NCBI RefSeq assembly: GCF_004379255.2
Contig: NC_056039.1
Coordinates: 8,048,501-8,112,500, forward strand
Reading direction: 5' to 3'
Length of the DNA: 64,000 nucleotides
From: Salvia splendens
Lineage: Eukaryota > Streptophyta > Magnoliopsida > Lamiales > Lamiaceae
The notes beneath the pieces are model-generated. The model saw only the letters and a program-made list of their open reading frames with translations, made no database searches and was not told the DNA's origin. The position numbers and the translations under genes are program-made. Shown here piece after piece: positions 1,290 to 57,067 of this stretch (position 1 is the stretch's first letter; each line of letters opens with the position of its first letter).

Positions 1290-2099
1290 AGCGATCACAC
1301 TATATAAAACATAGGTGTTGATATTGTTGTAGTACACCATGAATCTGAAGGGGTTGGTAGTAGAAGCGTGCATCAAATTGACCACATAATAATTCTAATC
1401 TATTTATCAGATTATTTAGACAAAATCTATTCGCATAATTCTTACATGTATAATGTTCATAACTTGAATTTAATCATGCTTTAGCGTAATTGAAACCTAA
1501 AACATGCTTACAACGGAATTAGCCAATTTACCTCGTTGATTCTCCAAAGAATCGAAGTTGGCTAGCGTCTTCTCCACGTGAAGATCTTGAGTACTAAACC
1601 ACGGATCTTCTGGCTGGTTCCCGGACTGTACGCTGATATCAGTGTGAGCTGATCTCACCAGAGTACTAGGACTTAAATAAAGAAGACAGAATTCCCTCAT
1701 AGAGGAGAGCTGGAAAAATCGTCCCTCTTGAAGAAAGAGAGGGGGAAGAAAATTATGATGACAATTAAGTCTATTTTCTGTCTCCTTTATTCTCCTATTT
1801 ATATTAAGTCACATATTGGGCCCAGTCAAGGATCTATGGAAGAATTTGGATATGACCTCCCCAATTAGTTTTTTACTAATTAAATTGAACCCACAATTTA
1901 ATATAAGCTTATATTGGAATATTACGAGCAGCCACTACAGAAGTAATATTGCACTGCCCCTCCAAATCCGAAATTACAAGTATTCCGGGTTTCAATTTGT
2001 TTGTCGTTCATTTCTTGTGCTTAAGATAGAAACATCCATTAATTAATTAATGTCTGCTATGAACTTAATTAATTAATATATTATTAACTCCAAGAGTGG
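1290..2099. other. Gene-free stretch, possible old repeat remnant
   Basis: No host gene was recognised. A 67-codon open frame on the minus strand (1497-1700) has no family resemblance I can name. The block around 1740-2095 has the look of retroelement flank DNA (repeated TTAATTAATTAA tracts), but no LTR pair, primer-binding site or polymerase coding sequence is visible, so this is only a suspicion. Confidence 0.25.
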
Positions 2100-2546
2100 A
2101 CGCCTGCCATTGCGTTGACGCCCCCGGAATTCCCGTTTAATACATTAAATGTTTTTTTTCGGTTCCTATATATACATCCCGTTAACTTCATTTCATTCGC
2201 ACCACTTGTATTAACAAGTTTCTCTCTCTCTAAATTTCTTTTATATATCCGTAATGGCCGGTAGTAGTAGTGGTAGTGGTGGTGGTAGTGGTAGTGGTGG
2301 CGATGGGCATTATGAACACATGATGCAGATGATACACGCACGTGTGCGGGAGGTGTTTCCGTATGACGTGGCAGTGCAGTGGGAAGTCCGTATGACGTGG
2401 CAAGAGGTGTTTTTGGGAATTCCGCACCACTGCTGATGCTCTTATGACGTGGCAATGCAGTGGGAAGTCCGTATGACGTGGCAAAAGGTGTTTTTGGGAA
2501 TTACGCGGAGAATTCCGCCGGGAATTCCGCGCCACTTTTGATGCTC
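2100..2546 (+). mobile_element. Deletion derivative of Harbinger family B
   Basis: This is a MITE-like relic of the transposase-bearing element at 55137-57067, in the opposite orientation. From about 2106 it matches that element's terminal region. It then carries the same leader (TTCATTCGCACCACTTG, then TCTCTCTCTC), the same start codon context, and about 33 codons of the transposase N-terminus: an ATG at 2254, a Gly/Ser-rich run and a HYEHMM..IHARVRE segment. After that it jumps to the distal terminal repeat. Its right end is GATGCTC followed by TTA, the usual 3-bp Harbinger target. The left terminus is unclear and probably truncated. The right terminal region is itself partly duplicated: GATGCTCTTA ends at both about 2441 and 2549. 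The short open frame cannot encode a working transposase. Confidence 0.75.
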
Positions 2547-2904
2547 TTAGTCTCTAATAAATGCGGCAAATAACGACCTAAGGCCATCCACAACGCTGTC
2601 TCTATACCGTCTCTTAACTACTATTTGAGCACTATTTGAGGGTCCCACTGTCCTTTTTTCCTCCATCCCTTAACTAAGGGACGGAACCTGCAACGCTCCG
2701 TCTCTTAACCGTCTCTATACCGTCCCTTAATTACTATTCATTCAATTTCATTTTTTATTTTTTTTCCCAACAAATTCAATTAAAAAACAAACTTCATTAA
2801 AAATAAAATAACATCACAACATAAAAAAACAACTTAAAATACTAAAAAAATAAAAATGACATAATTTAAAATACAATTTTATAGAGACAACCAAAAATGA
2901 GTTA

Positions 2905-3686: not shown

Positions 3687-3689
3687 CAT

Positions 3690-3732
3690 AAATTCGCAAG
3701 CCCATCAAATATATATGGGCTATCACGAATTT
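3690..3732. repeat. Small palindrome after the 73-bp array
   Basis: AAATTCG and AGCCCAT on the left pair with ATGGGCT and CGAATTT on the right around an AT loop. This imperfect hairpin of about 43 bp directly follows the last array unit. Confidence 0.6.
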
Positions 3733-4396
3733 CTTGTATTCATTTATTTGTAAAAATTATTTTTAAATATAAAAACAATTTTTATAAATAAAAAGTATTT
3801 TTTTAAAAAATTCGATTTTTATAAAAAAAATTGAATTATTGCGTTAGCGTGACGACGCCCACTCGCGGGCTAGCGAGTGGGCGTCACGCACGCATGGGGA
3901 CGAGCCAGTTGTCCCTGGCGCGTGGCGGGACATCTCGTCCCGTGTCTCGCCGAGACGGGCTACGAGACGGGCGCGGGCTAGGGACGGGATGTACGCTGCA
4001 ATGCGTCCCGCGGGGGACCCGTCTCTCCGAGACGAGACACGTGCCCGGCGCGGGACGCGTTGTGGATGGTCTAAAACAATTTGGCAATTCGAGACAAATA
4101 AAAGCGTACCAGAAAAAAAAGGTTTATATCCTGTTAGTGATGTGACTAATTTTCAATCACTAGTGCATCAATTTTCCATCAGTACTTTTTGACATATTCC
4201 TAAAATATGCCAAATCTATCATACTTTTCCTTCCTTTCATCTCTCTCATCTCTCTTGGATTATGGAGTAGCATTATATTCAATGGTAAGAGCGTCAATCC
4301 GCTCGAGGCCCAAAATTAATAAACTGATTCATCAAGCCCATTTCTGCGCGTAATTGAATCAGCAGAGAGAGCTGAAAAAACTAGAATTTGTTTTCG

Positions 4397-39994: not shown

Positions 39995-41772
39995 GAGCAT
40001 CCACAACGGCGGCCGTCCTGGCGGACGTCCGCCATTAGGCAGCAGGGAGGTGGACGCGGACGTGCGTTGCAGACACCGGAGTTCCGCGGCATTCCGGGGA
40101 CGTCCGTCGTGACGTCTGTCATTGCGGTGACACAACAGACGTCGTGAATTTTCAATTTTTTTTTTAAAAAAACTCTATATATACGGCTCGTTGAACTTCA
40201 TTTCATTCACACCACTTGTTTTAACGAGTTTCTCTCTCTCTACTTTCATTTCTTTTGAAGATAAATGGAGCACTTCGATAGTGATTCCTCTGCCACGAGC
40301 GAGTCACAAACGCCGACTTTTCCCGTTAGAGTTGGGGGAAATGCCAGCGGAAGTGCACCGATGTCCGGGATGATGCCCCAACCCCAAATGGCGGGATGAT
40401 GCCCGGGTACTACAATATGTACCCCCCTTGGTGTGGGATGATGCCCCAAATGTCTGGGATGAGTGCCGCGATGACGGGGATGATGCCTCAAATGCCTGGG
40501 ATGAGTGTCGCGATGACGGGGATGATGCCCAAATGCCCGGGTTGAGTGTCGCGATGCCCGGGATGATGCAGGGCATGCATGCCGCTGCAGGGGGAGCAGG
40601 GAGGAAGCCGGCGGGAGAAAGAGGACCATCTGGAGCATATGGGAGTGCGTCGCGCTGGTGAAGGCCGCCTGGATCAGTGTAGTCGAGGATCCCTACGTCG
40701 GGGCTAACCAGCATATCGACAGAATGTGGTGGCGCATTAGCCGAAGCTACCTCCAATTCAAACCGCCAGGTGGGAAGCCTCACGATGGAGAGCAAGGTCG
40801 GACACAGTGGGAGCGGCTGAGGAGGCAGCTAAGTCGATTTGCCGACATCTACCAAAACAATCTCCGCACGGCAACCAGCGACATGTCCGCCGATGATGTG
40901 AAGCTTCTGTCTCACCAGCAGTACCCCGACAGTGAATTGGGTTTCGGGGAATTCAAATATTAGGAGGTCTATCTTGTGGTGCAGACTTCCGCCATGTTTA
41001 GTTAGGGTGTTGAAGTTGGCTGGCCGAAGCGGACGAAGATCAACGCCTCCGGGGAGTACAGCAGCAGTGCCGGTTCCCGCGAACTCCCTGACGCCGAGGC
41101 AGAGTTCCCGACCCCTCAATCCCGCTGCCGTCGCTCGGTTGGGCAAAAGTCCGCGATGCGGATGGCAAGGGGAAGCGCCTGCGGGTTCGGATCCGAGGTC
41201 CAATCGGCAGCTCCTTCCCAGATCGATCCCGAGCTCCCCTCACTCGCCCGCATACAGCAGCATGATTCACTTTTAATCACCATGGATAAGTGGCTTGCAG
41301 CGACTGACCCCTTATACAAGTTGATGCTGAAGGATGTCATCGACAGTATGCGGCGCGATTTGGGGATGCCACCCCTGCCCGATTGTGACGACGGGACTGG
41401 CGGCGGGGACGACGAGGAGTGAGACGGGGGCCTCATTTGTCGAAGCTTGAGGTTGTTTTTTTTAACTATGTATTTTTTTAATAATTATATATGTTTTTTG
41501 TTTTAAATAAAATGGTTGCATTTTCTCCGTATTCGTGTCAAAATTTTAATTCCGTAAATTGTTTAGTTCCGTAAATTGTTTAATTTGGTGAATTTGTGAA
41601 TTTTTATTATTGTGGGATGTCCGTCGGGATGTCCTTAGGATGTCCGCCATTGTGCAGTGGGATGTCCTTATGACGTGGCAGTGCAGTGTGATGTCCTTAT
41701 GACGTGGCATGAGGTGTTTTTGAGAAGTCCATCGGGATGTCCGCCGGGACATCCGTCCCATTGAGGATGCTC
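39995..41772 (+). mobile_element. Harbinger family B element carrying only ORF1
   Basis: GAGCATCCACAACGGCGG at the left and the complement of GAGCATCCTCAATGG at the right, flanked by TTA (39992-39994, 41773-41775). The leader (TATATATAC, then TTCATTCACACCACTTG, then TCTCTCTCTCTAC) matches the leader of the transposase element 55137-57067. The 3' region (AATTCCGTAAATTG, GGTGAATTTGTGA, GATGTCC and TGACGTGGCA repeats) matches that element's other end. Between them lies not a transposase but a decayed ORF1 (40265-41422). The element thus seems to be the ORF1 half of a split two-gene family. Confidence 0.8.
40265..41422 (+). pseudogene. Decayed Harbinger ORF1 (Myb/SANT-like accessory protein)
   Basis: The frame opens at an ATG (MEHFDSDSSATSESQTP) and meets a stop at 40397-40399 after a one-base loss. 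It then shows a Met/Gly/Pro-rich repeat of the GMMPQMPGMSVAM type, made by a roughly 60-bp tandem DNA repeat (40434-40560). The next block, in another frame, contains KAAWISVVEDPYVGANQ and RMWWRISRSY followed by WERLRRQLSRFADIYQNN. This looks like the Myb/trihelix-like ORF1 of PIF/Pong elements, often annotated as glutathione S-transferase T3-like or NAM-associated. The acidic C-terminus LKDVIDSMRRDLGMPPLP...GGGDDEE is in a third frame. At least three frame disruptions make it a pseudogene. In intact elements ORF1 helps the transposase bind and mobilise DNA; that role is inferred by family. Confidence 0.7.
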
Positions 41773-41775
41773 TTA

Positions 41776-42710
41776 GGACCCTCCAAGCTTTCTAACAATT
41801 TAAAAAATAGGCAACCAAAAACATTATCCGAAAATATATTTTCTAAAGTAGGAAATGCGTAAGAATTAATTAATCATAATGACCTAGTACGATGCCAGAA
41901 GTTCGATCGTAGGTACTACAATGGAATTAATTAGAAAAGAAAAAGAAGAAATGGTTCTATACACTTCTTTTATATCACTTCTTTTTATTATTATAGGAGT
42001 ATATCAATAAATAATAAAACTAATTTTTAATTAAATTCACTTATTTTTTTTATTGTTATAGGAGTATATCAATAAATAACAAAACTATTTTTTAATTAAA
42101 TTCACTTAAATTCAAAAATTTAAGGATATTATGTACTTCGTATATATACATATACATTTATCTTTTCTCTTCTAGTATTTTGTTTAAAACTACTACTATA
42201 TAAAATGTTTCAATTTTGTCTAATGAACAAATTGCTTTTAACTTCCTTTTAGATTGAAAATATTATAGCTTTGTCTGTATTATCGAGTGGATAATTCTGC
42301 CCACTCTTGTCTTATAGTAATATAACATGCACATTACTAGTAATATTAATTTATATTGCATACATGTTATCTGTATTTTAAATTTACTATATGAAATTCT
42401 TATCATTCGTTCATTTATAATTAATACAAATAAAATATATATCATTCATTTGTAAAGATAATTCAAGAAAGATTGTCATTTTAGCTAACCTATTATTCCC
42501 ACTCCACACTGTCCCAATAAATAAATCCTTAATTCTTCTTTTTATTTGTTTCAAAATATGTCTACTTTTATAATTTAAATTTTTTAATTTGCCTACTAAA
42601 ATAACGTTCTGTGATGTCGGTGGACGGTGAAGATAATATTGTAGCATGAGACAACGAATAAGAGTATAATTGTAGATACAGTACTTTTAAAAATCATTAA
42701 ACATTAACCC
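41776..42710. other. Gene-free stretch
   Basis: AT-rich. A tandem phrase (TTTTTATTATTATAGGAGTA, then TATCAATAAATAA) occurs twice, about 65 bp apart, near 41980 and 42045. No gene was recognised. Confidence 0.45.
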
Positions 42711-43020
42711 AAGGAGTGTGGTTGAGTGGCATTGGACTCGTCCATCCTTAATCAAATGGTTAGGGGATCGATCCGACTGACGCATTGGTTTCCGCGCCCG
42801 AACCGTGAAACTGCCGGTTAACCGGCGGTTCCGAACCGTCCCGAACCTGCGGTTCAGTGACGGTTCCGGTTCGAAAATTCTTGAACCTAAACCGGACCGC
42901 GGTTCGAATTGCGACGGTTCCAGTTCGAGGAAATTGCCACGGTTCTGGTTCGGAACCGGAACCGGCGGTTCCGGTTCGCCGGTTAACCGCCGGAACCGGA
43001 ACCAGTGGGCATCTCTAACA
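42711..43020. other. tRNA-like block next to CGGTTCCGG-rich hAT-like fragment
   Basis: GTGTGGTTGAGTGGC (A-box-like) and GGGGATCGATCCG (B-box-like) at about 42715-42775 give a tRNA-like head. Next to it is a GC-rich block (GAACCGTGAAACTGCCGG ... GGCATCTCTAAC) of inverted GGTTCCGGTTCG repeats to about 43020, like the subterminal parts of hAT elements in this window. No target duplication was found, so the class is tentative. Confidence 0.4.
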
Positions 43021-43400
43021 GGGCCTGGGTCCGTCCTCATATCAAAGAAAAAGTCCTTTAACCGTCCTTTGAAAGTCCTCAAAGAAAAAGTCACTGGGTC
43101 CGTCCTTAAAGGGGTATGGGTCCGTCCTCAAAGGGGTATGGAGCAACTTTAAATCCTTGGGCCGGTCATTGGGTCCGTCCTCAAAGGGGTATGGAGCAGC
43201 TTTAAATCCTTGGGTCTGGATCCGTCCTCATTTCAAAGAAAAAGTCACTGGCTCCGTCCTTAAAGGGTCAGGTCCGTCCTCAAAGGGGTCCTTAAAGGGC
43301 CGGGTCCGTCCTCAAAGGGGTATGAAGCAGCTTTAAATCCTTGGGCCAGCGGTCCTCAAAGAAAAAGTCATTAGCAGTCCTCAAAAAAAAAAGTCCCTCC
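43021..43400. repeat. Irregular minisatellite, GGGTCCGTCCTCAAAGG units
   Basis: Mixed tandem units of GGGTCCGTCCT(C/T)AAAGG, GGTATGGAGCAGCTTTAAA, TCCTTGGGCC and AAAGAAAAAGTCACTGG repeat in changing order. There are about nine GTCCGTCCT(C/T) cores. Non-coding. Confidence 0.65.
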
Positions 43401-44085
43401 CTCGGTGGATACCCTTTTGGTAATTACCAAAAAAAATATTAAACATTGGTAACCTGTGTTGCACTCATTCGATCTCGAGATAAAAATGGCAATTTCCTAA
43501 AATCGAATAAATAAATCCACTGTTATCAAATGACTTTCCTAATTATTAACCGTATGATTCTGTTGCAATTCCGAGAGCACGATTGTCGTGTCGTTCGAGT
43601 TTCGAGCTTATCATATCATTTTAATCATACGGCGCAGAAAATGGGAAAAAAAACAGATTTTTGAAATTAATTTATTTTCCCTTGTAAAAATATGATAAAA
43701 AAGTAATTGAAATTTGGTGTATATAAACAAAACAGCCACCGTCACACTTCTAATCTCATGCGCATTCGAGCAGCATTGCTGCAGAGGCTGAACCCAAAAC
43801 GACGACGAAAACGTCACGTGGCGCAGCAGTAGTTAGCGTGCCGTCGCCGGCGCACGTTAGCTATCTTCCGGAACTGTTTTTCAGTTAATTCTTCGTCTGT
43901 TTCTTTCTCTTAAGACAAAGGAAAGCTATATCACAAAGGGATAAGAATACAAGTGCCGAAAGTAACAAAACCCCAAATTAAAGAAAAAGAGCAGGATTTC
44001 CGATTTCCACCTTTAAATAGCAGCCAAAATCCGAAGGAAAGAAATTATAGGTGCTGTATTTGTACAAGGAAAACGAGAGCTAGCA
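43401..44085 (+). promoter_or_regulatory. BGAL8 upstream region with G-box
   Basis: No other gene was seen. CACGTGGC at 43815-43822 is a G-box/ABRE core, bound by bZIP and bHLH factors in plants. GTATATAAAC near 43720 and TTTAAATAG near 44011 are possible TATA boxes, with the second in better distance for a short leader. Regulation by ABA or light is inference from the motif only. Confidence 0.4.
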
Positions 44086-47000
44086 ATGGCGGTTTCGTTG
44101 TACGGCTTATTTTGTTTGCTGTTGCTGACGACGACGTCGTTCTGTTTTGCCGCCAACGTGACGTACGATCACCGCGCGCTGGTGATAGACGGAAAGCGGA
44201 GGGTTCTCGTCTCCGGCTCCATCCACTACCCGCGCAGCACTCCTGATGTTAGTACGGAGCTCGCATTTTTCACGCGCACACACAGTAGATACATTTTTAT
44301 GAATGGAAATGTGATGTTTTCCTTTTTTGTTGTGCTTGGGATCAGATGTGGCCGGACTTGATACAGAAATCCAAAGACGGAGGATTGGATGTGATAGAGA
44401 CTTACGTTTTCTGGAATTTGCATGAACCAGTTCGCGGCAAGGTGATTGCTCATTTTATTGTTTGTTAATCTATGTTTTCGAAAAATGCGATTATCTCTCT
44501 ATTTCTCGTTGTTGATTTGGTTTTGTGGTGCTTTTCTCTGGCATGATTATCCCTAACTTGGATGTATGATTTTGTTTAATGGAGAAAAAAGGGGAAAGTG
44601 GAGTAATGACGAAGAAAAGGCAAAGAATAAGTTTTTTCTGATTTTCCAGTTTCTTGATCGAAAAGTAGTGAACTTTTTGAAGTAAATTATTTAGTAATGT
44701 GGTTGAGTCCGCGTTTTCAATCATTGTTGTTGGGGCTATTGATTAAGATTTGTTTTGATAACTGAAAGTCAATTATGGAGAGTGTGAAAGAAAGAAAAAA
44801 TACTTAATAGAGAAAAGTGACGCTTACGGTTTGAAATTGAATTTTGCAGTATGATTTTGAAGGCAGAAATGATTTGGTGAAATTTGTGAAGTTGGTGAAG
44901 GAGGCTGGTCTGTTTGTTCATTTACGAATCGGTCCCTATGTCTGTGCTGAATGGAATTATGGGTAATTTAAGATTTTCCTCCATTTATCAAGAAAGAATA
45001 GCACTTTTATATCTTGGTTTTGTTAATGTATAAAAATATGGAGATGATTATGTGTGTCATGGTTGAAATGAGAACTGCTAATCTATTTTCGAACAGTGGA
45101 TTTCCTCTTTGGCTGCATTTTATACCTGGAATCAAGCTCCGGACAGATAATGAGCCTTTCAAGGTTGCTATTCTCGCATCGCTTTCTTTCATTTTGATTT
45201 GGCTGTAATTGTTGGTTGTTTCTTTGAACACTAGCATAACCTAAAATGCAATGGATTAATGGGATATTGCAGGCTGAAATGAAGAGATTCACAGCCAAGA
45301 TTGTGGACTTGATGAAACAAGAAAATCTGTATGCATCACAGGGAGGCCCCATAATTTTGTCTCAGGTTGAATGCTCTAAGAATCATGTTTTAGCATCTTT
45401 ATAGCTATAAGTGCTCAAGGATCTCGTGTATGTCCAACATTTCAGATAGAAAATGAGTATGGAAATATTGATTCTGCTTATGGTGGTGGTGCTAAACCGT
45501 ACATAACCTGGGCTGCAACAATGGCCACCTCACTGAATACAGGAGTGCCCTGGGTTATGTGCCAGCAAAAAGATGCTCCTAATCCTATTGTAAGTTCTGG
45601 TTTCATAATTCCACCTGTAATTAGAGCCAAGCTCGATGGCTACTTCAGCAGATGATAAATCCAATCTAATAAACTGCATTCCCTCCTGAATAATACAGAT
45701 TGACACTTGCAATGGGTTTTACTGTGACCAGTACACCCCAAATTCCAATAACAAGCCAAAAATGTGGACGGAAAACTGGAGCGGATGGTACAACTTTAGA
45801 TAATGCTTGATCATTGTTAAACTGCATTGTGGTTCTTTGTTTAGTATCTTTGGGGCTGTCTAACTTTTCCTGCATGTGTTGTTAATAAAACACCAGGTTC
45901 TCTTCATTCGGTGATCCTCTGCCATATAGACCTACGGAAGATGTTGCTTTTGCTGTTGCACGCTTTTACCAGCTCGGGGGAACCTTCCAGAACTATTACA
46001 TGGTATATATATAGCTGTCGTTTACATTGGATATATGCAAGAACTTGTCATATGAATTGTATTGCATTTTTCAGTACCACGGTGGGACTAACTTTGGTCG
46101 CTCGAGTGGTGGACCTTTCATTACCACAACCTATGATTATGATGCTCCAATTGATGAGTATGGTATGTCATTCCTTTGTCTAATATCTGTTTCTTCACTA
46201 CAACAAGTTTAGGTTGTGAAATTTGATGAGTTTCCAACAGCTATTAACAACAATGTCTAATATGATACGGACATCCAGAGAGTATATTTTTTCTTGTTTC
46301 AATGTAATATTTTCTGATATGGATTCATGAATGTGTATTGACTGCTCTGTTTAGGCCTTCTGAGGCAACCAAAATGGGGTCACTTGAAAGATGTACACAA
46401 GGCTATAAAACTTTGTGAAGAGGCAATGGTGGAAACTGATCCAAAAACCACATCTCTCGGTTCAAATTTGGAGGTATAACATCTTCTCCCTACAAGGTTC
46501 TACTCATTAAGAAGCATGTCTCTCTCTTTCGAATCATCATTACGCTACTCTTGGCTCCAACTTCTTGTTCTGGATCTTTCTTGCTGTTTTAACAAGGCAT
46601 ATTTTCAATAGCATTTTATTCACAAATTTCTATCTCTGAATTAAGATTATTGCAACTTCTCCTGAAAATGTAATTTTCTGTCTCAGGCTAGTGTATATAA
46701 AACAGAATCAGGAAAGTGTGCTGCTTTTCTTGCAAATGTTGGCACACAATCGGATGCCACGGTGAAGTTCAATGGAAATTCCTATAGTTTGCCTGCTTGG
46801 TCTGTCAGCATCTTACCTGACTGCAAGAATGTGGTCCTCAATACTGCAAAAGTATGCATTGCAAGCCTTAATATTGCATTTCTCCTTTCCAACCATGAAC
46901 CTTGGAGATTTGATACTTGAACTCCAAAGCAATTGAAATTTTATCCTTCAATGTTATAATATCTCTAATAAGTCACTAGCAGATTTCAGTCAGAAGCTAA

Positions 47001-48900
47001 TGGCACTTGACAAATAACAGATAAATTCAATGTCAACTGTTACGAAGTTCGTTCATCAGTCTTCAGAAGATGGTGCTACAGAAACAGATGCATTCTCAGG
47101 TTGGAGTTGGATCTACGAACCTGTAGGTATATCCAGTAATAATGCGTTCACAAAACCTGGGCTGCTGGAGCAAATAAACACAACTGCTGATCAAAGTGAC
47201 TATCTTTGGTATTCTCTGAGGTATGTATGGGAGCTTTTCAAAAAAAGACACACTGCTGTGTTTTAGACAAAGCTCTTAAATTCTTAACTTTTTTCGTGAT
47301 TGTTTCAGCATTGAAATGAAAGGGGACGAGCCTTTTCTTGAAGACGGGTCTCAGGCAGTCCTTCATGTGGATTCTCTAGGCCATGCACTTAATGTTTTTA
47401 TCAACGGGAAAGTTGCAGGTGAAGTGACTAAAAAATAAATGAACACTTCAACTTTTTTGCCCTTTGCTTCTGCTATTCCGTCTTAACTGCTTGGGGCTTG
47501 CTATATATTGTACAGGGGGTGGCAATGGGCGAAACAGTAACCCTAAAGTCTCATTAGATGTTCCCGTAAGCCTTGTTCCGGGTAAAAATAATATTGATCT
47601 CTTGAGTTCAACAGTGGGATTGCAGGTATATATGCACAGAGTTTATCAATAAATCTTACAAGAAGTTTTACCTAATGCAAAAAAAATTTTGATTCTAGAA
47701 CTATGGAGCATTCTTCGATTTGAAAGGTGCTGGAGTTACAGGGCCAGTCCAGTTAAAAGGCCTAAAAAATGGATCTACGGCTGATCTGTCCTCTCAGCAG
47801 TGGACATATCAGGTCAGTTTTTAACATTGAGTCAAAAGTAGCTAATATGTTTGTTGGTGATACGACATCCTATTTCATCGGTATTGATCTCATGTGTAAT
47901 GCAGATTGGTCTAAAAGGGGAAGGGCTAGGCCTTTCGACTGGAAGCTCCTCACTTTGGGTGTCACAGCCTGCCTTGCCCAAGAATCAACCACTGGTCTGG
48001 TACAAGGTACATTTTCACCATGATAACAACTATTCCAATGTGACTATGTTGAAGATATAATCTCAATAAAATTTACTGTGTGATCCAGACAACTTTTGAT
48101 GCCCCCTCCGGAAGCAGCCCGGTGGCATTGGACTTCACAGGACTTGGGAAGGGTGAGGCATGGGTAAATGGACAGAGCATTGGGCGTTATTGGCCTACTA
48201 ATATTGCCTCAAGCAATGGCTGCACCAACTCTTGCAATTACAGAGGATCTTACAGCTCTAACAAATGTCTGAAAAACTGTGGGAAGCCTACTCAGCTGCT
48301 GTAAGAGCTTCTTTTCTTTATAAAAAAACTTTTTAGTATCACTTTTCCAAGTAGTCATCATGTTTGGTGTTTCAGGTACCACGTGCCCCGTTCGTGGCTA
48401 AAGCCAAGTGGAAACTTGCTAGTGTTGTTCGAGCAGGCAGGGGGAGATCCTACAAAGCTATCTTTTGCAACTAGAGAGGTGCAAAGCATATGCTCTCGCG
48501 TCTCAGAGTCACACCCGATTCCTGTGGAGACGTGGACTGCAGACGAGGAAACGAGGAAAAGGACAGGGCCAACTCTGTCCCTGGGTTGCCCTCATCCACA
48601 TCAGGTCATATCTAAGATCAACTTCGCCAGCTTTGGTACTCCTCATGGATCGTGTGGGAGTTTCAGCCACGGCCGATGCAGCAGCGAAAGAGCTCTCTCC
48701 ATTATTGAAAAGGTCTTGCTGATTTATTTTGTCACAAACTATGCTGATATTTTCTAAGATGGTGTTTTGATTTGGTTATGTATATACCGCAGGCTTGCGT
48801 AGGATCAAGAAGCTGCAGCGTTGGAGTATCGGTTAATACGTTTGGCGATCCCTGTGCAGGAACTGCTAAAACCTTAGCTGTGGAAGCTTCTTGTGCATAG
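44086..48900 (+). CDS. BGAL8: Beta-galactosidase, GH35, BGAL8 type with C-terminal lectin domain
   Basis: Predicted 844-aa apoplastic enzyme in 19 exons, beginning 44086-44247, 44346-44441, 44850-44962, 45097-45163 and 45273-45365 and ending 48089-48300, 48376-48712 and 48793-48900; all borders are GT-AG and in phase. A signal peptide ([15 protein letters not shown]) is followed by NVTYDHRAL and the GH35 barrel. The acid/base Glu181 lies in SQIENEYG and the nucleophile Glu250 in [17 protein letters not shown] and [13 protein letters not shown] follow, then jelly-roll domains ([27 protein letters not shown]). The last 85 residues form a SUEL-type galactose-binding lectin domain with Cys-rich GSCGSF and [10 protein letters not shown] motifs. 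It removes terminal beta-galactose from cell-wall pectin side chains or AGPs. Wording and exon plan match Arabidopsis BGAL8 (about 850 aa). A decayed partial copy lies 3 kb downstream (51996-52786). Confidence 0.94.
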
Positions 48901-50007
48901 TCTGTTACAAAATATGAAGTTGTTCACACAATTATTGAAACAATAAATAAAAAAGGCAACCTTTTCTTAGTAGGAACTTGATCATAATTATTTATAATCA
49001 TCGATGTTTAGTGCATAAAATGCAAAGTGGTATATGCAGCTGTACGAGTTTTCTTGAAAGAACAGCCATAGTCACTTCACTTGAAGAATTACTTATGTTA
49101 TACTAGTATATTTATATAGAAAAATGATATGCTACATATTTTATGTGAGTTCCTTATGTGAGTACCACTCTCGTTACATTGTTCGTTTCGATTTATATAT
49201 TTAGTTTGATTCTAATGCATTAAAAATGTTATTTGAATTTTTAATTTCAAAAAATTCATAAAAATCAAAGCTCGATTTGCTTGTTTTCTCTATAAATTCA
49301 AATAAATTAATAAACTAAAAAATTAAGCTTTCATTTTTATTAATTTTGTGAAATTAAAAATTTCAATAACATTTTTTAATGTATTAGAATCAAACTAAAT
49401 ATATAAATCAAAACGAACAACGTTAAATATGCGTTAAACGGGAGTAGTGCTCACATAAGGTATGTAGCATATTATTTCTCTATTTTAATATATCTAAAAA
49501 TATCATGCTATATATGATTATAAAGAAAAAATAATTAATAATAATTCTACCGAAAATGTATTATAAATGTACTCAATTATTGTTCTACTAGACAATAATA
49601 CGGGAATAACCCAAAAATATTACACACAAATAACCTTATTTTTGTATAAATGGGTTTGAAATTTTGAATAATGGTACCTAATGTAAACCTGTGCTAAATC
49701 AGTTTTAAGAATTTGTAAATCATATTTTTAATTATTTCCAAACCGCGAAAACTCATCTACATTCTCCATTTCATTAACCTCTGCTAGACATTTCATCATA
49801 CAGTCTCCCTGCGAGCGCCGATCCGACTTTAATCACCAATTCAGCCACCTCCACCGCCGTCGTACCATCTTCTACGGCCCCCGGACTCCCCATTGCGGCC
49901 ACCACATGCGGGTATTTTCAACATCTTCTCACCTCAATTCATCATTAAACATTACCATTCTTCATCACCTTCCCATCAACTAACTGAAATTCACCCCAGT
50001 TCCTACA
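48901..50007. other. Intergenic region BGAL8-PPR with foldback element
   Basis: The first 80 bp contains AATAAATAAAAAAGG, a likely polyadenylation region of BGAL8. A foldback MITE occupies about 49115-49486. The 150 bp before the PPR start codon is C-rich leader-like sequence. Confidence 0.5.
49115..49486. mobile_element. Foldback MITE between BGAL8 and PPR
   Basis: The left arm (ATGATATGCTACATA, then TTTTATGTGAG) pairs with the right arm (CTCACATAAGG, then TATGTAGCATATTATTT). Pairing continues inward (AATGCATTAAAAATGTTATT against AATAACATTTTTTAATG, with TTTAGTTTGATTCTAAT against ATTAGAATCAAACTAAAT). Almost the entire 370 bp is an imperfect hairpin. The exact ends and target duplication are unclear, so the superfamily is not assigned. 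No coding sequence. Confidence 0.65.
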
Positions 50008-51282
50008 ATGTTCGCTCCACGCGGAAATAAATCTCAACTCATCCAACCCTATAAACGCTCTCTCTCTAGTATGTTCGGTCCAACCCAATCCAATAATCCC
50101 ACTCCTTCGTCAACCTCCTCCCACAGTCTCTCAAATTCAACATTCCTGTCTCAATTACGCGGTAAACCACCTAAAAACGCAGTCTTGTTCAGAAACCTGT
50201 CTGCTGCATCCCATTCTACGCGAATCTACAAAGGCCCAATATCAAGAACATTGAGGAGGAGAATCAAGAAAAGAGAGATAGCCGCGGCGAAACCCGTTCT
50301 AAACGAGTCTCTCTTCCAAGCAGCCAAATCCCAACTCCCACCGAGATTCACTCCTGAAGAGCTGCACGATGTCATAGCCTTACTGGAAGATCCTTTAGTT
50401 TGTTTCGAGCTTTTCAATTGGGCATCTCAGCAGCACAGATTCAGGCACAATGCGTTGACATATCACGTTACGATCAAGAAGCTCGGTGCAGCTAAAATGT
50501 ACGAGGAGATGGATTGTGTCGTCAATCAGGTGCTAGCCGTTTCTTCTATTGCTTCCGAGCCCCTTTACAATAGCATGATTTACTACTTCACCGAAGCTAG
50601 GAAACTGGTTAGGGCTGTCAATATATTCAAGCGGATGTGTGATTGTAGGAAATTGGATAGCATGCCAACTATAAGAACTTACAACATATTGTTTGCCGCG
50701 CTTCTGAGCCGTGGAAAGAATTCCTACATTAATCATATGTATATGGAGACTATAAGAAGTTTGTTCAAGCAAATGGTAGATGCTGGGATTGAGCCTGATA
50801 TCTTTTGTCTCAATTCTATGATCAAAGGATATGTGCTTTCACTTCATGTCAATGATGCACTTAGAATCTTTCACCAGATGGGCACGGCTTACGAATGCCA
50901 GCCCAACTCGTTTTCGTATGATTATTTGATTCACGGGCTGTGTGCGCAAGGCCGAACGCAGAATGCTAGAGAGATTTGTGATAGGATGAAGAAAAGTGGT
51001 TTTGTGCCTAGCAGTAAATCGTATAACTCCCTTGTGAACTCATTGGCTCTCGAGGGGGAGGTTGATGAAGCTGTGAAATTCTTGTGGGAGATGGCTGAGC
51101 ACCAGAGGTGGGCTGATGCCATCACTTATAGAACTGTCTCGACTGAAATATTACGACAGAGAGGGACTAGAGAAGCTTTGAGGTTCTTGGACCTGTTGCA
51201 AGAAAAGAAACTTGTAGATGGGCAGACGTACCAAAAGATTGTGTATGAACTCGAAGATAACTCTCGTTATGAAAATATATGA
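50008..51282 (+). CDS. Pentatricopeptide repeat (PPR) protein, P class
   Basis: Intronless 424-aa protein, as usual for PPR genes. The Ser/Arg-rich N-terminus (about residues 1-75, with SHSTRIYKG) fits an organelle transit peptide; mitochondria are more likely than plastids, by analogy. GPISRTLRRRIKKREIAAAK and LLEDPLVCFELFNWASQQHRF precede about seven degenerate 35-residue repeats, for example TYHVTIKKLG, LYNSMIYYFTEARKL, TYNILFAALLSRG, CLNSMIKGYVLSLHVNDAL, SYDYLIHGLCAQGRT and SYNSLVNSLALEGEVDEAV. No E or DYW tail is present. PPR proteins bind single-stranded organelle RNA and act in processing, splicing or translation; the target cannot be read here. The architecture resembles Arabidopsis At2g27800-type proteins, from memory. 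It lies between BGAL8 and the BGAL8 fragment. Confidence 0.9.
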   Translation: MFAPRGNKSQLIQPYKRSLSSMFGPTQSNNPTPSSTSSHSLSNSTFLSQLRGKPPKNAVLFRNLSAASHSTRIYKGPISRTLRRRIKKREIAAAKPVLNESLFQAAKSQLPPRFTPEELHDVIALLEDPLVCFELFNWASQQHRFRHNALTYHVTIKKLGAAKMYEEMDCVVNQVLAVSSIASEPLYNSMIYYFTEARKLVRAVNIFKRMCDCRKLDSMPTIRTYNILFAALLSRGKNSYINHMYMETIRSLFKQMVDAGIEPDIFCLNSMIKGYVLSLHVNDALRIFHQMGTAYECQPNSFSYDYLIHGLCAQGRTQNAREICDRMKKSGFVPSSKSYNSLVNSLALEGEVDEAVKFLWEMAEHQRWADAITYRTVSTEILRQRGTREALRFLDLLQEKKLVDGQTYQKIVYELEDNSRYENI

Positions 51283-51995
51283 TGTGTATTCAGGTAAATG
51301 GCTGGACCGGTTTTTTCTAATAACCGTTGTGTAGGTCCTCCCGTTCATATCGCACTGAAAGAAAGAGGATCAATAAGTTTAGTTATGCCAGTGCAGGTGT
51401 TCAAGTTTTGGTTTGTTCTGTATTTTTATTTGTAGTTCAAGATAAATATATCGTGTTTGCTTTTTTGGTCTGATACTCTTGAGAGTCTGACTACAACTTG
51501 CCTATTCTTCATCATCCATGTGTTCTTATCATTGACATAATGTCAAAGACCTATGTAAAAATGAATTGTGTTGCTAAGAGTTCATTTCTTAAGATTGGGA
51601 CCATTAGGACCAGTCTTTCTTCCTTGATGTGCTTTGTTGCGGTAACCGTGTAAGTTAGCTCTGATGATTCATGTGGCCGAAGCTAGTACAAATGAGGGCA
51701 AACGGCTGTGATTACAAAAAAATGACTGGAGAGCAAACGGCTGCTTAACTTTGTTATGTAAAAGGATAGAAAAAGAATTTAGCGTAAAACTCACAACAGA
51801 TACATTGTCAAAGAGATTACAAAAGACAATTTAGCTGTTACAAATGAGGGCCATCAGAAATTCGCAATAGCAGTTGAATGCTAAAAATTACTGTATTATA
51901 TGTCTTGTGATTACAAACAAAATGTAGAGAGCAAATGGCAGCTTAACTTTGTTTCTACAAAAATAGAAACAACAGATCCATCGTCTCGGCCATTT
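51283..51995. other. Downstream region of PPR gene
   Basis: Likely 3' UTR followed by gene-free DNA. A loosely repeated phrase (TGTGATTACAAA, GAGAGCAAA, then CGGCTGCTTAACTTTGTT) occurs near 51706 and 51906. No gene was recognised. Confidence 0.4.
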
Positions 51996-52786
51996 GATAT
52001 ATGCAAGAACTTGTCATATGAATTGTATTGCATTTTAACAGTACCATGGTGGGACTAACTTTGGTCGCTCGAATGGTGGACCTTTTATTACAACAACCTA
52101 TGATTATGATGCTCCAATTGATGAGTATGGTATGTCCTTCCTTCGACTAATATCTGTTTCTGCACCACAACAAGTTTAGGGTGTAAAATTTGATGAGTTT
52201 CCAATAGCTATTAACAACAATATCTAATATGATACGGACAGCCAGAGAGTATATTTTTTCTCTTGTTTCAATGTAATATTTTCTGATATGGATTCATGAA
52301 TGTGTATTGACTGCTCTGTTTAGGCCTTCTGATCCACTTGAAAGATGTACACAAGGCTATAAAACTTTGTGAAGAGGCAATGGTGGAAACTGATCCAAAA
52401 ACCACATCTCTCGGTTCAAATTTGGAGGTATAACATCTTCTCCCTACAAGGTTCTACTCATTAAGAAGCATGTCTCTCTCTTTCGAATCATCATTACGCT
52501 ACTCTTGGCCACAACTTATTGTTCTGGATCATCCTTGCTGTTTTAACAAGGCATATTTTCATTAGCATTTTATTAACAATTTTCTATCTCAGAATTAAGA
52601 TTAGTGCAACTTCGCCTGAAAATCTAATTGTCTGTCTAGGCAAATTGTGCTGCTTTTCTTGCAAATGTTGGCACACAATCGGAATTATTGAAGGAATTAA
52701 ATAAAAAAGGGCAGCCTTTTCTTAAGTAGGAACTTGATCTTCGATCTTGCAAATTTGGTGGTTCCCACAAACTTTATCCTCAATCT
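51996..52786 (+). pseudogene. Decayed partial copy of BGAL8 (exons 9-11 joined to 3' UTR)
   Basis: From 51996 the sequence follows BGAL8 from about 46030: end of intron 8, exon 9 ([10 protein letters not shown] region with substitutions), intron 9, exon 10 with a deletion of about 15 bp after CCTTCTGA, intron 10 and the start of exon 11 with a deletion of about 25 bp. After CACACAATCGG (about 52683) it jumps to the BGAL8 3' end (ATTATTGAA...AATAAAAAAGG, parent about 48932). CACACAAT occurs at both parent breakpoints (46743 and 48925). Homology resumes after the Harbinger insertion at about 55048 (TTAGTGCACAGAATGCGAAG against parent TTTAGTGCATAAAATGCAAAG near 49008) and fades by 55130. The signal peptide, catalytic glutamates and lectin domain are missing, so it is not functional. 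Confidence 0.85.
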
Positions 52787-53181
52787 TTAGAGCATCTGCA
52801 ATGGTGGACGGACGGCGTCCGTCCGTGCCAGCGGCACTGAAGACGTCGTCCGCCGCTGCGCTCTCGCCGCTGGCACGGCGTTGCTCGATGCATCGAGCAC
52901 ATCCGTGCCAGCGAGCAGGTGACGCGGCAGCGTGTGATTGACCAACGGCATTTCCGTTGGATTTTTTTTAAAATCGAAAATAATACAAAAAAAAAATTCC
53001 CAATCCCAAAAAATGCCCGCTTTTCCCGTTTTTCTGTATTTTTTTAATTTTTTTAAATTTTTTTCCCTCAAAATCATCTATAAATACACACATTCATCAT
53101 CCATTTTTTACATCAAATCATCTCTCATTCATATTTTTCATACAACTTATCTACACCTTCATCTCGCACTCAAAACCTCAA

Positions 53182-54467
53182 ATGGATTTCACCCATCTCA
53201 TTGCGGAAGCGGAGCGCGAAGAACAAGAATACTACGAACAACATCATGCCGCTTATGAAGCATATGTCGCAGCGAATACCCCCGCCCCTCCTGCTCAACC
53301 AACTAGATCAACTCGCCGCTACATCCATCGTGACCGGGAGGGAGCCCACGAAAGGCTCGTTGCCGACTATTTTACCGACCCGCCGCGGTTTCCGGCAGAT
53401 TACTTTAGGCGTCATTTTCGCATGTCAAAGCGCTTGTTTATGCGTATTGTCAACACATTGTCCGTCCGTGTTGAATTCTTCCAAACAGGTCCAGATGCAG
53501 TCGGTCGGCAAAGTATCTCGGCGTTGCAGAAGTGTACGTGTGCCATCCGACAACTCGCTACTGGGCAAACGGCCGACCTCTTCGACGAGTATTTGCATGT
53601 CGGTGAGTCTACTGGAATCCTTTGTCTGAAATTTTTTTGCGAGGGCGTTCGTACAACTTTCGGTGATGAATTCCTTCGGACACCCACCACCGATGATTGC
53701 CAACGGTTGCTTCGTCTCCACGAATCAGTCCATGGCTTTCCCGGAATACTTGGCAGCATTGACTGCATGCATTGGAGGTGGAAGAATTGCCCAACTGCTT
53801 GGAGGGGGCAACACTTAAGCGGCCACAAAGGCGGCGGCCCAACACTTATCCTTGAAGCGGTCGCCGACTACCGCCTATGGATTTGGCATGCATATTTCGG
53901 CGTTGTCGGATCCAACAACGACTTGAACGTGCTATATTCTTCACCCCTCTTCAATGATGTGTTGAATGGTGTAGCACCGGCGATCGACTTCACTGTCAAC
54001 GGAAATACATACCACATGGGTTACTATCTCGCCGATGGTATCTACCTAAGGTGGTCGACTTTCGTTAAGACGCTCAGCAACCCGCAAGACCCGAGACGGG
54101 TTCTTTTGCGCAGCGTCAAGAGTCCGCGCGGAAAGACGTTGAAAGAGTCTTTGGGGTCCTTCAAGCCCGATTCAACATTGTGAAAGCCCCGGCTCGGCTG
54201 TGGTACGTGAATAATATCGCCGATATCATGTACACGTGTATTATCTTACACAACATGATTATAGCCGATGAAGCACCGAGAGCGGCTAGCTTCTACGACG
54301 AGGATGAAGCCAGAAGCTCAAGCGCGAGGTCTCCCCCACGCCGAGGTGTGCATACGACGGTGGGTGAGAGGATCGAAACAAGGCACACAATGCGTGATAC
54401 CCAAACCCACGTTGATCTACAAGAAGACCTAATCAAACACATGTGGGCAAAATTCGGTAATGAGTAG
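53182..54467 (+). pseudogene. PIF/Harbinger transposase, one frameshift
   Basis: The frame starts MDFTHLIAEAEREEQEYYEQ and runs 333 codons. The N-terminal region (RRYIHRDREGAHERLVADYF, FRRHFRMSKRLFMRIV) and the DDE nuclease core (HGFPGILGSIDCMHWRWKNC, then TLILEAVADY, GSNNDLNVLYSSPLF and GYYLADGIYLRW) are those of HARBI1-like transposases. The first two catalytic Asp residues sit in GSIDCMHW and GSNNDLNV. A one-base loss in the T run at 54104-54107 shifts the frame. The catalytic Glu region and the tail (LWYVNNIADIMYTCIILHNMII, 54180-54467) are intact in the next frame. Apart from this lesion the coding sequence looks whole (about 427 codons), so inactivation seems recent. In intact PIF/Pong elements the transposase needs ORF1, which is absent here. 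Confidence 0.88.
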
Positions 54468-54561
54468 TGAGTTTTTTTAATTTTACGAATTTAATTATGT
54501 AATTTTTAATTTTTAGGAGTTTAATTATGAAAATTTTAATTTTTAGGATTTTAATTATGTA

Positions 54562-54813
54562 CTCCCTCTGTCCACGAATAGGAGTCTCGTTTTTCCATTT
54601 TAGTCCGTCCGTGAATAAAAGATCCGATTCACTTTTACCATAAATGGTAATAGGGTCCCACCTTCCACTAATTCATTTCACTCACATTTTATTTAAAATT
54701 AATATATACAAATGGGACCCCTATTCCATTAACTTTTTTCCACCCACCTTTCCTAACATTTCTTAAAACTCGTGCCACTAAGAAATGGGACTCCTAATGG
54801 CGGACGGAGGGAG
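54562..54813. mobile_element. Stowaway MITE nested in Harbinger element
   Basis: CTCCCTCTGTCCACG at the left and GGCGGACGGAGGGAG at the right, next to TA. It shares length and nearly all sequence with the copy at 25346-25593. The insertion lies between the transposase tail and the right end of the family A element. Confidence 0.88.
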
Positions 54814-55136
54814 TAATTTTTAATTTTTAATGTATTTTGTAATATTATTCCGGGTATGTGTAATGTATTTTAATTTTGTGGAAATATTTTTATTTAAATT
54901 GAATAATGGAATGATGAGACCCTTGTGCTCGTCCTTGCGGAAGAGCACAGCTGTGGGTGTTGTGCTCTTGCCTAAGAGCAAGCATAAAAGGTGGCGCCGG
55001 GCCCACAACCGTGCTGGTTGGCAAGAGCACGGTTGTGGGTGCTCTTATTAGTGCACAGAATGCGAAGTGATATATACAGCTGGCTATTAATATGGAGTAC
55101 TAAGTTTTGATAAAGGAGTAGCCATAGCCAATATTA

Positions 55137-57067
55137 GGGCATCCGCAGTGGCGCAGATGTCCTAGCGGACATCCCCGCGGACATCCCAAAAACACCTCCT
55201 ACCACGTCATACGGACTTTCCACTGCGGATGCCACGTCATACAGACATCCCACTGCACAGTGGCGGACATCCCCAAGGACATCCCAACGGACTTCCCACA
55301 TTAAAAAAAATCACAAATTCACCAATTTAACAATTTACGGAATTAAGCAATTTATGGAAGAAAAATTCGAAACGAATACGAAATAAAAAATTTATTAATT
55401 AAAAAAGAAAAGTACATTTCACCAAAATAAAAAAAATACATTTTAACAATTAAAAACTCCATCAACGACAACCCCTCCGCTGCCATACTTCTTCAATTAT
55501 ATCGTTCTGGAGTCGAACATGGGCTTATTTTTTGCGCATGTCAGCTAATGCACGGACTCGCTCGACATCGTCATGGGGTATCTCCATGCGTACATTGCCA
55601 GTGGCCACGCCGTGGCTTGGACCCGCAGCCGTAGCATCATCGTTGGCCCAATCGGTCAGCGCTGGGCCTTCATCTTCGACAATCATGTTGTGCATGATAA
55701 TACATGCGTACATGATGTCGGTGATGCTGTCAACATACCACAGCCGTGATGGACCTTTTACTGCCGCCCATCGAGACTGGAGCACACCAAATGCCCGCTC
55801 CACATCCTTGCGCGCTGCCTCCTGACGTTGCTCAAAGTATATCTTATTTTCATCCGTTGGGCATCTGATCGTCTTCACAAAAACGGGCCACATCGGGTAT
55901 ATCCCATCAGCCAAATAATAGCCCATACTGTGTTGGTTGCCGTTGGTGACGAAACTGACGGCCGGACCGACGCCCATGCACTGGTCGTTGAAGAGGGGTG
56001 ACGACTGGAGGACGTTGATGTCGTTGTTAGACCCGGCTACTCCAAAATAGGCATGTCAAATCCACAGCCAGTAGTCAGCTACTGCTTCAAGGATCATCGT
56101 GGGATTCTTGGCCTTGAAACCAGTAGTGTACATCCCTTTCCAGGCAGCGGGGCAGTTCTTCCATTCCCAGTGCATACAATCTATGCTGCCTAACATCCCC
56201 GGAAACCCGTGCTGATTCTCGTGCATATCCAGCAGAGCCTGACAATCTTTGGGGGTAGGATTCTGAATAAACCTATCCCCGAATATCTCCCTAACGCCCT
56301 GACAAAAATACTTCAGGCAGTCGCGGGCAGTCGGCCTAATTGCGGCAGTGCACTTCTGAATCGGCGTGTGGCCGGGTTTACCAGCCGCATCCTCCTGCAC
56401 CCTAAAATACCCATATCGACGCTCCAAAGCGCCCACGATACGCAGAAAGAGCGGACGATGCATCCTAAACCGTCGCCGGAATAGGTTCTCCCCAAACCGT
56501 GGCTCCGAAGCAAAGTAATCCTCGTACAACCGACTGTGGGCAGCGAGGTGATCCCGGGGCACTATAGTACGACGATGGATGGGTCGAGGCACCGCCGGCG
56601 CCGAGGCCGCTTGTTCCTCCCTCTCCGCGGCCTCCCGCACACGTGCGCGTATCATCCGCATCATGTGTTCATAATGCCCACCACCACCACTACCACTACC
56701 ACCACCACCACCACCACTACCACCACCACTACCACTATCACTACTACTACCAGACATTACGGAAATATAAAAGAAATTTAGAGAGAGAGAAACTTGTTAA
56801 AACAAGTGGTGCGAATGAAATGAAATGCAACTAGACGTATTTATAGAATTTTTTTCAAAAAAAAAATAATGCAAAAATCGGGAATTCCGCGCCGACGTCC
56901 ATGGGAGTCAACGCAATGGCGGACGTCGCGACGGACATCAGCCGAAAGGCGCGGACATGCGGTGTCCGTATCGGACGTCCATATCAGCTGAACAGTTGCA
57001 CAATGGCGTACGTCCCGCGAAGACGTCGGTCTGACATCCGCGCCGAAGTCCGCCATTGCGAATTCTC
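55137..57067 (-). mobile_element. Harbinger family B element with transposase
   Basis: GGGCATCCGCAGTGGCG at the left and the complement of GAGAATTCGCAATGGCGG at the right, flanked by TTA (55134-55136, 57068-57070). Repeats of GACATCC and TGACGTGGCA-type sequence fill the left end; GACGTCC and GCCATTGCG fill the right. The gene runs leftwards from 56757. Its leader and 3' region match the ORF1-only element at 39995-41772 and the relic at 2100-2546. It inserted just beyond the last recognisable part of the BGAL8 fragment. Confidence 0.85.
55525..56757 (-). pseudogene. PIF/Harbinger transposase with one stop and a small deletion
   Basis: Starts with a Ser/Gly-rich run (SGSSSDSGSGGG) then HYEHMMRMIRARVREAAEREEQ. 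The transposase body shows FRRRFRMHRPLFLRIV, HGFPGMLGSIDCMHWEWKNC and MILEAVADYWLWI, followed by an in-frame TGA at 56058-56056 where relatives have Trp (WIWHAYFG). The same frame continues without further stops through GYYLADGIYPMW, RKDVERAFGVLQSRW (catalytic Glu) and LWYVDSITDIMYACIIMHNMI to 55525. About 22 residues are missing, in frame, between AAIRP and TARDCLKYF, where family A has the DLFDEYLHVGES segment. The copy is therefore disabled by two lesions. Confidence 0.88.

What the first reader, a model, noticed from the sequence alone, without database searches (positions are those of the whole stretch)
39995..57067. Split (two-component) Harbinger family: ORF1-only and transposase-only elements with the same ends
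Seen: the element at 39995-41772 carries only an ORF1-like gene; the one at 55137-57067 carries only a transposase. Both share the leader (TTCATTCRCACCACTTG then TCTCTCTCTC), a 3' region with AATTCCGTAAATTG and TGACGTGGCA, and TTA targets. The relic at 2100-2546 shares both. Known: PIF/Pong-type elements normally carry both genes in one unit. Inference: here the two genes live on separate elements under copies of one promoter, so mobilisation would need both in trans.
Basis: partly seen in the sequence, partly recalled or inferred. Interest (0 to 1): 0.75.

Follow-up and report, generated by a model that had tools for sequence, protein, structure and literature searches.

The report
Two-gene transposon split across separate elements
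In this sage genome the two genes that this kind of jumping gene normally carries together sit on separate mobile elements with related ends, so the elements probably depend on each other to move.

Summary
Window 39995-41772 is an ORF1-only element, 55137-57067 a transposase-only element; both have 3-bp target duplications and share a leader and a 3' region. Both copies are dead.

One ORF1 motif occurs at 320 places. A query spanning both genes scored 40 places; the only one with both is a transposase element nested in an ORF1 element. Of 400 listed ORF1 and 180 listed transposase places, two pairs lie within 10 kb, both nested. A third nested case escaped those lists. All three use the homologous TTA. 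One ORF1 locus (L024) is unresolved.

The split is wider than one family: four ORF1 and four transposase families show it, some from single loci. One transposase-only family is recent: 28 copies at 99-100% protein identity; the six read have matched duplications and no ORF1.

Limits: only the best few dozen to 150 of thousands of candidates were scored; A and B ends are about 75% alike; trans-mobilisation is inferred; a rare or lost two-gene parent is not excluded.

The parts
39995..41772 (+). ORF1-only element (family A), TSD TTA/TTA
40014..40256 (+). 5' region and leader shared with element B (73% over 261 aligned columns); leader CATTTCATTCACACCACTTG at 40199
40265..41422 (+). ORF1 remnant (Myb/SANT-like by weak scores), frame broken, about 270 bp shorter than sibling copies
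41437..41770 (+). 3' region shared with element B (78% over 340 aligned columns)
41697..41709 (+). TTATGACGTGGCA; in sibling elements L031, L043 and (as TTATGACATGG) L049 a transposase-only element is inserted at the homologous TTA
55137..57067 (-). transposase-only element (family B), TSD TTA/TTA on + strand
55525..56757 (-). transposase gene (PF04827/PF13359), stop at 56056-56058 and a 57-nt in-frame deletion
56769..57025 (-). 5' region and leader of B, homologous to A 40014-40256
55139..55471 (-). 3' region of B, homologous to A 41437-41770
2096..2546 (+). relic: transposase-type 5' part (leader at 2189, ATG at 2254 with transposase N-terminal codons) joined to a duplicated 3' end
52790..55044 (+). 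second transposase-only family (T2w), TSD TTA/TTA, transposase from 53182, 67% DNA identity to B's transposase, different leader

Best explanation
These are Pong-type PIF/Harbinger transposons whose two genes live on separate elements. One class carries only ORF1 (the presumed DNA-binding partner), the other only the DDE transposase. In A and B each gene sits flush between a leader and a 3' terminal region that recur in the other class. Shown: both classes include complete, independently inserted units with their own ends and 3-bp duplications; several sequence families of each class have this architecture; one transposase-only family moved very recently; no two-gene unit was found except by nesting. 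Inferred: ORF1 and transposase proteins are made from different loci, meet in trans, recognise related ends, and so mobilise both classes and the MITEs derived from them.
For: Independent mobility. Matched 3-bp TSDs in 6 of 8 transposase-only (L009-L016) and 11 of 21 ORF1-only copies. Transposase-only elements sit inside ORF1-only elements with TTA on both sides in L031, L043 and L049. Recent activity. TPase P0019 has 28 copies at 99-100% protein identity among 95 places listed. Six copies read, on five loci: bare units of 1886-1972 bp (one split by another), each with a matched TSD and no room for or sign of ORF1. No cis pair. Spanning query: 1 of 40 places has both genes, and it is nested. 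Places listed: 250 ORF1 (100 of family A, 150 of O3) against 180 TPase (85 B, 95 P19-type) give 2 pairs under 10 kb, 1.1 expected by chance, both nested; 150 O4 ORF1 places give 0. Breadth. ORF1-only units in families A, O2 (one locus, L032), O3 (L044 = L046, L045) and O4 (L051-L054). Transposase-only units in B, T2w (one), T3 (one, L038) and P19. Between ORF1-only families A and O2, dN/dS is 0.445. Shared ends. A/B as above. O3 and B copy L010 share the first 31 bases. P19's 3' end matches 3 of 4 O4 loci (78%, 78%, 73% over 99-110 bp).
Against: Searches were capped: 40 scored of 5569, 9008, 8540 and 9463 first-look DNA candidates, and 150, 95 and 150 of 13418, 19274 and 13916 for proteins. 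The list comparison missed L043, whose transposase is on no list although its ORF1 is, so it is insensitive; I lowered confidence from 0.72 to 0.70 for this. L024: the family-A ORF1 element has a truncated 5' side abutted by about 180 bp of reversed transposase C-terminus, and a diverged transposase lies about 1 kb upstream on the same strand; its 5' end is undefined. Ends of A and B differ by about 25%. O3 ends are no closer to B overall (71%/77%); only the outermost bases agree. Within family A, substitutions look near neutral (dN/dS 0.75 private, 0.63 and 0.90 shared; transversions 1.33 and 1.25), as for passive copies. No recently multiplied ORF1 partner of P19 was found; the searches meant for it did not complete. 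A-B ends are closer than A-O2 or B-O2 ends, which fits end homogenisation or a split younger than the A/O2 divergence. L037 is a chimera with an ORF1-type 3' region followed by leader and transposase.
Confidence: 0.7

Rival explanations
1. Ordinary non-autonomous derivatives: a two-gene parent with its own leader and 3' UTR for each gene (now rare, unlisted or lost) gave ORF1-only and transposase-only copies by recombination between the repeated leaders or repeated 3' UTRs.
For: In A and B each gene is flush between the same leader and 3' region, as recombination between repeats would leave. L037 has the order 5' end, leader, ORF1-type 3' region, leader, transposase, 3' end with no internal TIR. 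L024 joins a transposase piece to an ORF1 element's truncated 5' side. A and B ends are nearer each other than to O2. Rice Ping and Pong encode both proteins (PMC2836001, passages seen).
Against: No such parent among the 40 best places for a spanning query, nor among 400 x 180 listed places (insensitive). The same architecture in four ORF1 and four transposase families would need the loss to recur. The youngest family seen is transposase-only.
Confidence: 0.2
2. The transposase-only elements are self-sufficient: this transposase does not need ORF1, and the ORF1-only elements are parasites or relics.
For: P19 amplified with no ORF1 in the six copies read. Low-copy Medicago family MtPH-E also lacks orf1 (PMC2213677, passages seen). 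Near-neutral change within ORF1 family A.
Against: P19's transposase (444 aa) carries the same three precomputed Pfam domains as most other listed plant homologues, so no extra domain is evident. ORF1 and TPase are both required for Ping/Pong and for Harbinger3_DR (PMC2836001, passages seen). ORF1 copies are numerous (320 motif places) and conserved between families.
Confidence: 0.1
3. ORF1 comes from canonical two-gene Pong-like elements elsewhere in the genome, so the transposase-only elements are half-dependent but no paired split system exists.
For: Cross-mobilisation occurs between Ping and Pong at 62% and 77% protein identity (PMC2836001, passages seen). The PF04827 families of the genome were not surveyed as a whole.
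Against: No canonical two-gene element was recognised in the loci read. ORF1-only and transposase-only elements share ends with each other.
Confidence: 0.15

Closest known systems
Pong/Ping (rice) and Pong-like elements of the PIF/Harbinger superfamily
   Same: PF04827/PF13359 DDE transposase, ORF1 with weak Myb/SANT-like scores, short TIRs, 3-bp TTA/TAA duplications, associated MITE-like derivatives
   Different: [quoted passage not shown] here each gene is on its own element
MtPH-E of Medicago truncatula (PMC2213677, passages seen)
   Same: transposase-containing PIF/Harbinger elements with no orf1 in any member
   Different: 3 elements in all, 2 with transposase, no ORF1-only partner in the passages seen; here high copy number, several families and an ORF1-only class with shared ends
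mPing-type MITEs and other deletion derivatives
   Same: moved by proteins supplied in trans
   Different: MITEs are non-coding; here each class carries one of the two genes
Spy elements of invertebrates (PMC9179366, passage seen)
   Same: most have a single transposase gene
   Different: Spy transposase is said to have DDE and HTH motifs; no separate ORF1 class is mentioned in the passage

Membership tests
PIF/Harbinger superfamily (Pong-like) | DDE transposase of the Plant_tran/DDE_Tnp_4 family | tested here: met
   PF04827 188.9 and 86.3 bits (cut-off 22), PF13359 36.9 bits (cut-off 24.8); named homologues include HARBI1 and ALP1-like proteins
PIF/Harbinger superfamily (Pong-like) | 3-bp TWA target site duplication | tested here: met
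   matched in 6 of 8 and 11 of 21 copies, all TAA or TTA; matched in 6 of 6 P19 copies, 5 TWA and 1 TGA
PIF/Harbinger superfamily (Pong-like) | short terminal inverted repeats | tested here: met
   GAGCATCCACAACGG / CCATTGTGGATGCTC and GAGCATCCGCAATGG / CCACTGCGGATGCCC
PIF/Harbinger superfamily (Pong-like) | ORF1 with Myb/SANT-like domain | tested here: inconclusive
   PF13837 18.2 bits, below its cut-off of 27, E 0.0033, for the O2 protein; predicted helices at residues 72-149; weak match to the Zeste DNA-binding domain, E 1.4, probability 0.82; an O4 homologue, P0136, bears PF14303
PIF/Harbinger superfamily (Pong-like) | both genes in one element | tested here: not met
   nested cases only; L024 unresolved; searches capped
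PIF/Harbinger superfamily (Pong-like) | both proteins needed for transposition | not testable with these tools
   needs an assay
non-autonomous deletion derivative of a two-gene element | a full-length two-gene parent with the same ends | tested here: inconclusive
   not found in the places scored or read, but these are a capped part of the genome's copies

The most novel reading that the evidence does not exclude
Salvia holds a genuinely multipartite DNA transposon, comparable to a multipartite virus. ORF1 and transposase genes are propagated on separate elements with co-evolving ends, across several families and up to recent activity. Two-gene units re-form only when a transposase element inserts at a recurrent TTA site in the 3' end of an ORF1 element.
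Probability: 0.45. Interest if true: 0.75.

Novelty: new variant of a known kind. Interest (0 to 1): 0.62.

Why it matters
PIF/Harbinger elements are treated as two-gene units. If the genes can persist for long on separate elements, autonomy becomes a property of a community of elements rather than of one element. That would change how autonomous copies are annotated, how MITE bursts are explained, and how host silencing of one partner would stop the other. The recent transposase-only family offers a testable case.

Tried and rejected
L031 was first taken for a two-gene unit (note). Reading the junctions showed the inner transposase element's own ends and a TTA on both sides, so it is a nested insertion. 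L043 and L049 turned out the same way. L037 was taken for a possible ancestor remnant; it is a single chimera, and its TSD is not matched. L024 stays unresolved. Of four ORF1 copies with short 3' alignments, L039, L040 and L042 hold no transposase-like stretch in the roughly 2.4 kb fetched, and L041 has one (204 bp) about 1.8 kb beyond the element's end. L017's 5' part is split by about 1.9 kb of unrelated sequence without a transposase-like stretch. Selection within family A gave no clear constraint. The Foldseek search of the ORF1 model gave no match at E <= 0.001. Between-family transposase synonymous sites are saturated, and ended in an error after the two comparisons that I cite. A transposase motif count, a TIR pattern search for the ORF1 partner of P19, and a whole-element search with P19 did not complete. 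Literature: searches list no paper on split PIF/Harbinger elements by title and start of abstract, and one search lists none at all; the library lacks most subscription papers (Zhang 2004, PMC1470744, not held).
Full report
WHERE IT IS. The window is G000:C8:8048501-8112500 of an 806-Mb assembly with 1162 contigs. The host is therefore inferred to be Salvia splendens.

THE OBSERVATION. Elements A (39995-41772) and B (55137-57067) are exact, each between TTA repeats. They share 5' and 3' regions but no coding sequence. B codes for a Pong-type transposase. A codes for an ORF1. Its relative O2 (63% protein identity) has ten homologues in the protein search, three of them Salvia hispanica proteins named glutathione S-transferase T3-like. 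Myb/SANT scores of seven ORF1 proteins are all below Pfam's cut-offs. The O2 model is poor overall (pLDDT 60.8) with a better helical core at residues 72-149; one weak Foldseek match is the Zeste DNA-binding domain. Both window copies are dead. A second transposase-only family lies at 52790-55044.

GENE CONTENT OF THE FAMILIES. A DNA search with A scored 40 of 5569 candidates, and one with B scored 40 of 9008. A 30-base ORF1 motif with up to 3 mismatches occurs at 320 places in the genome, and the reversed control at 0. Twenty-one family-A loci were read (the window copy and L017-L036). One, L031, holds a transposase gene inside. In L018 and L027 a transposase lies outside the element's ends. 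L024 is unresolved: its 5' side is truncated and abutted by a reversed piece of transposase C-terminus, and a diverged transposase lies about 1 kb upstream on the same strand. In L031 the transposase element begins with its own GAGCATC end after a TTA and is followed by TTA and the missing rest of the ORF1 element. L043 shows the same at the homologous TTA with the insert reversed. L049 shows it in an ORF1 element of family O3 with a P19-type transposase element. None of 15 transposase loci (L009-L016, L037, L038, L047, L048, L055-L057) gave an ORF1-like stretch with six ORF1 proteins at E <= 1e-5; a short ORF1 deletion derivative beside B copy L016, seen by DNA, is outside the transposase element.

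SEARCH FOR A TWO-GENE COPY. A 2734-base query running from ORF1 into transposase (from L031) was scored at 40 of 9463 candidates. Apart from L031, the listed matches cover leader, transposase and 3' region but not family-A ORF1 coding sequence; the one further ORF1-side match, at C8:16297469 (70%), belongs to the separate ORF1 deletion derivative. Listed places were then compared: 100 (family A motif) plus 150 (O3) ORF1 places against 85 (B) plus 95 (P19-type) transposase places gave 2 pairs within 10 kb, with 1.1 expected by chance. Both, L031 and L049, are nested insertions. Another 150 ORF1 places (O4) gave 0 pairs. This comparison is insensitive: the L043 pair was missed because its transposase is on no list, and the window's own A and B are 14 kb apart. 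L037 is one chimera in which a 5' end and an ORF1-type 3' region without coding sequence precede leader and transposase, with no inner TIR.

BREADTH. ORF1-only units: O2 in L032, with ends and TTA on both sides; O3 in L044 and L046, which share flanking sequence and so are counted once, 1986 bp with TTA/TTA, and L045 with decayed ends; O4 in L051-L054, where 1.5-kb flanks show no transposase except a B-like fragment beside L052 and, by its leader and start codons, the beginning of another transposase beside L054. The 5' ends of the O4 units are not fixed, so they are the weakest of the four. Transposase-only units: B (eight loci), T2w in the window, T3 in L038 with TAA/TAA, and P19 (below). 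A further transposase next to L027 was seen only in part.

RECENT ACTIVITY. TPase P0019 has 95 listed places of 19274 candidates; 28 are 99-100% identical over the full 444 aa. Six elements on five loci were read: L047 and L048 differ by 2 bases in 1972; L055 and L056 are 1886 and 1960 bp; L057 holds one copy inserted into another. All six have a matched 3-bp duplication (TAA, TTA, TAA, TAA, TTA, TGA), and none has room for or sign of ORF1. The other 22 copies were not read.

ENDS AND AGE. Mean end identity (5'/3') is 0.87/0.90 within ORF1-only A, 0.89/0.93 within B, 0.75/0.77 between them, and 0.66-0.71 to O2. In that count L017, L025, L027, L028, L034 and L016 dropped out for lack of a recognisable leader, and L017 and L030 were left out of the 3' set. 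O3 and B copy L010 share their first 31 bases, but O3-B identity over the whole end is 0.71/0.77, no better than A-B. P19's 3' end matches O4 loci L052 and L054 at 78% over 99 bp and L053 at 73% over 110 bp; L051 gave no such match. Between ORF1-only families A and O2, dN/dS is 0.445 over 325 codons. Within A, changes look near neutral. So the gene has been constrained over long times, while copies inside a burst decay freely.

HOW IT PROBABLY WORKS. In Ping, Pong and Harbinger3_DR both proteins are required; for Harbinger3 the ORF1 protein bound the ends and the transposase (PMC2836001, passages seen). By that precedent the two proteins made from separate elements meet in the nucleus and act on any element with fitting ends. 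Steps shown here: separate complete units, TSDs, recent spread of a transposase-only unit, shared end sequences. Steps inferred: expression, need for ORF1, trans action.

AGAINST. The lists are capped; no recent ORF1 partner of P19 was found; A and B ends differ by a quarter; the flush gene boundaries, L037 and L024 leave room for a two-gene parent. These keep my confidence at 0.70 (0.72 before I saw that the list comparison had missed L043).

KNOWN OR NEW. Coding PIF/Harbinger elements are described as carrying two genes (PMC2836001, passage seen). Medicago's low-copy MtPH-E lacks orf1 (PMC2213677, passages seen). I found no description of an ORF1-only/transposase-only pair in the listings, which cover only openly licensed papers.

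Noticed in passing
window 41697 (also 41668, 2442); L031 4105-4110; L043 about 250 and 2200; L049 (minus orientation) about 2815: The TTA of TTATGACRTGG in the 3' end of these elements took three transposase-element insertions, in two orientations and in two ORF1 families: an insertion hot spot or docking site.
   Followed up: partly
L047, L048, L055-L057; one search list: A very recent burst of an intact 444-aa ALP1-like transposase element (28 copies at 99-100%), including one copy inserted in another.
   Followed up: partly
window about 56334 (-): Element B's transposase lacks 57 nt (19 aa) in frame that sibling copies carry.
   Followed up: partly
L037 about 2010-4136: Chimeric element: 5' end and ORF1-type 3' region without coding sequence, then leader and transposase, no inner TIR.
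   Followed up: partly
L024 950-2430: Reversed transposase C-terminal piece abutting the truncated 5' side of an ORF1 element, with a diverged transposase about 1 kb upstream.
   Followed up: partly
L054 (minus orientation) 1-430: Start of another transposase gene with nearly the same leader (CACCACTTGTTTTAACGAGT) but different outer ends (GGCCATTCGTAATGG), suggesting that leaders and ends are shuffled between families.
   Followed up: no
L038 336-1009: ORF1-element deletion derivative keeping only about 200 bp of the ORF1 C-terminus between its ends.
   Followed up: no
window about 54562-54814: A small repeat with inverted ends (CTCCCTCTGTCC...GGACGGAGGGAG) nested in the 3' part of the second transposase element.
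   Followed up: no
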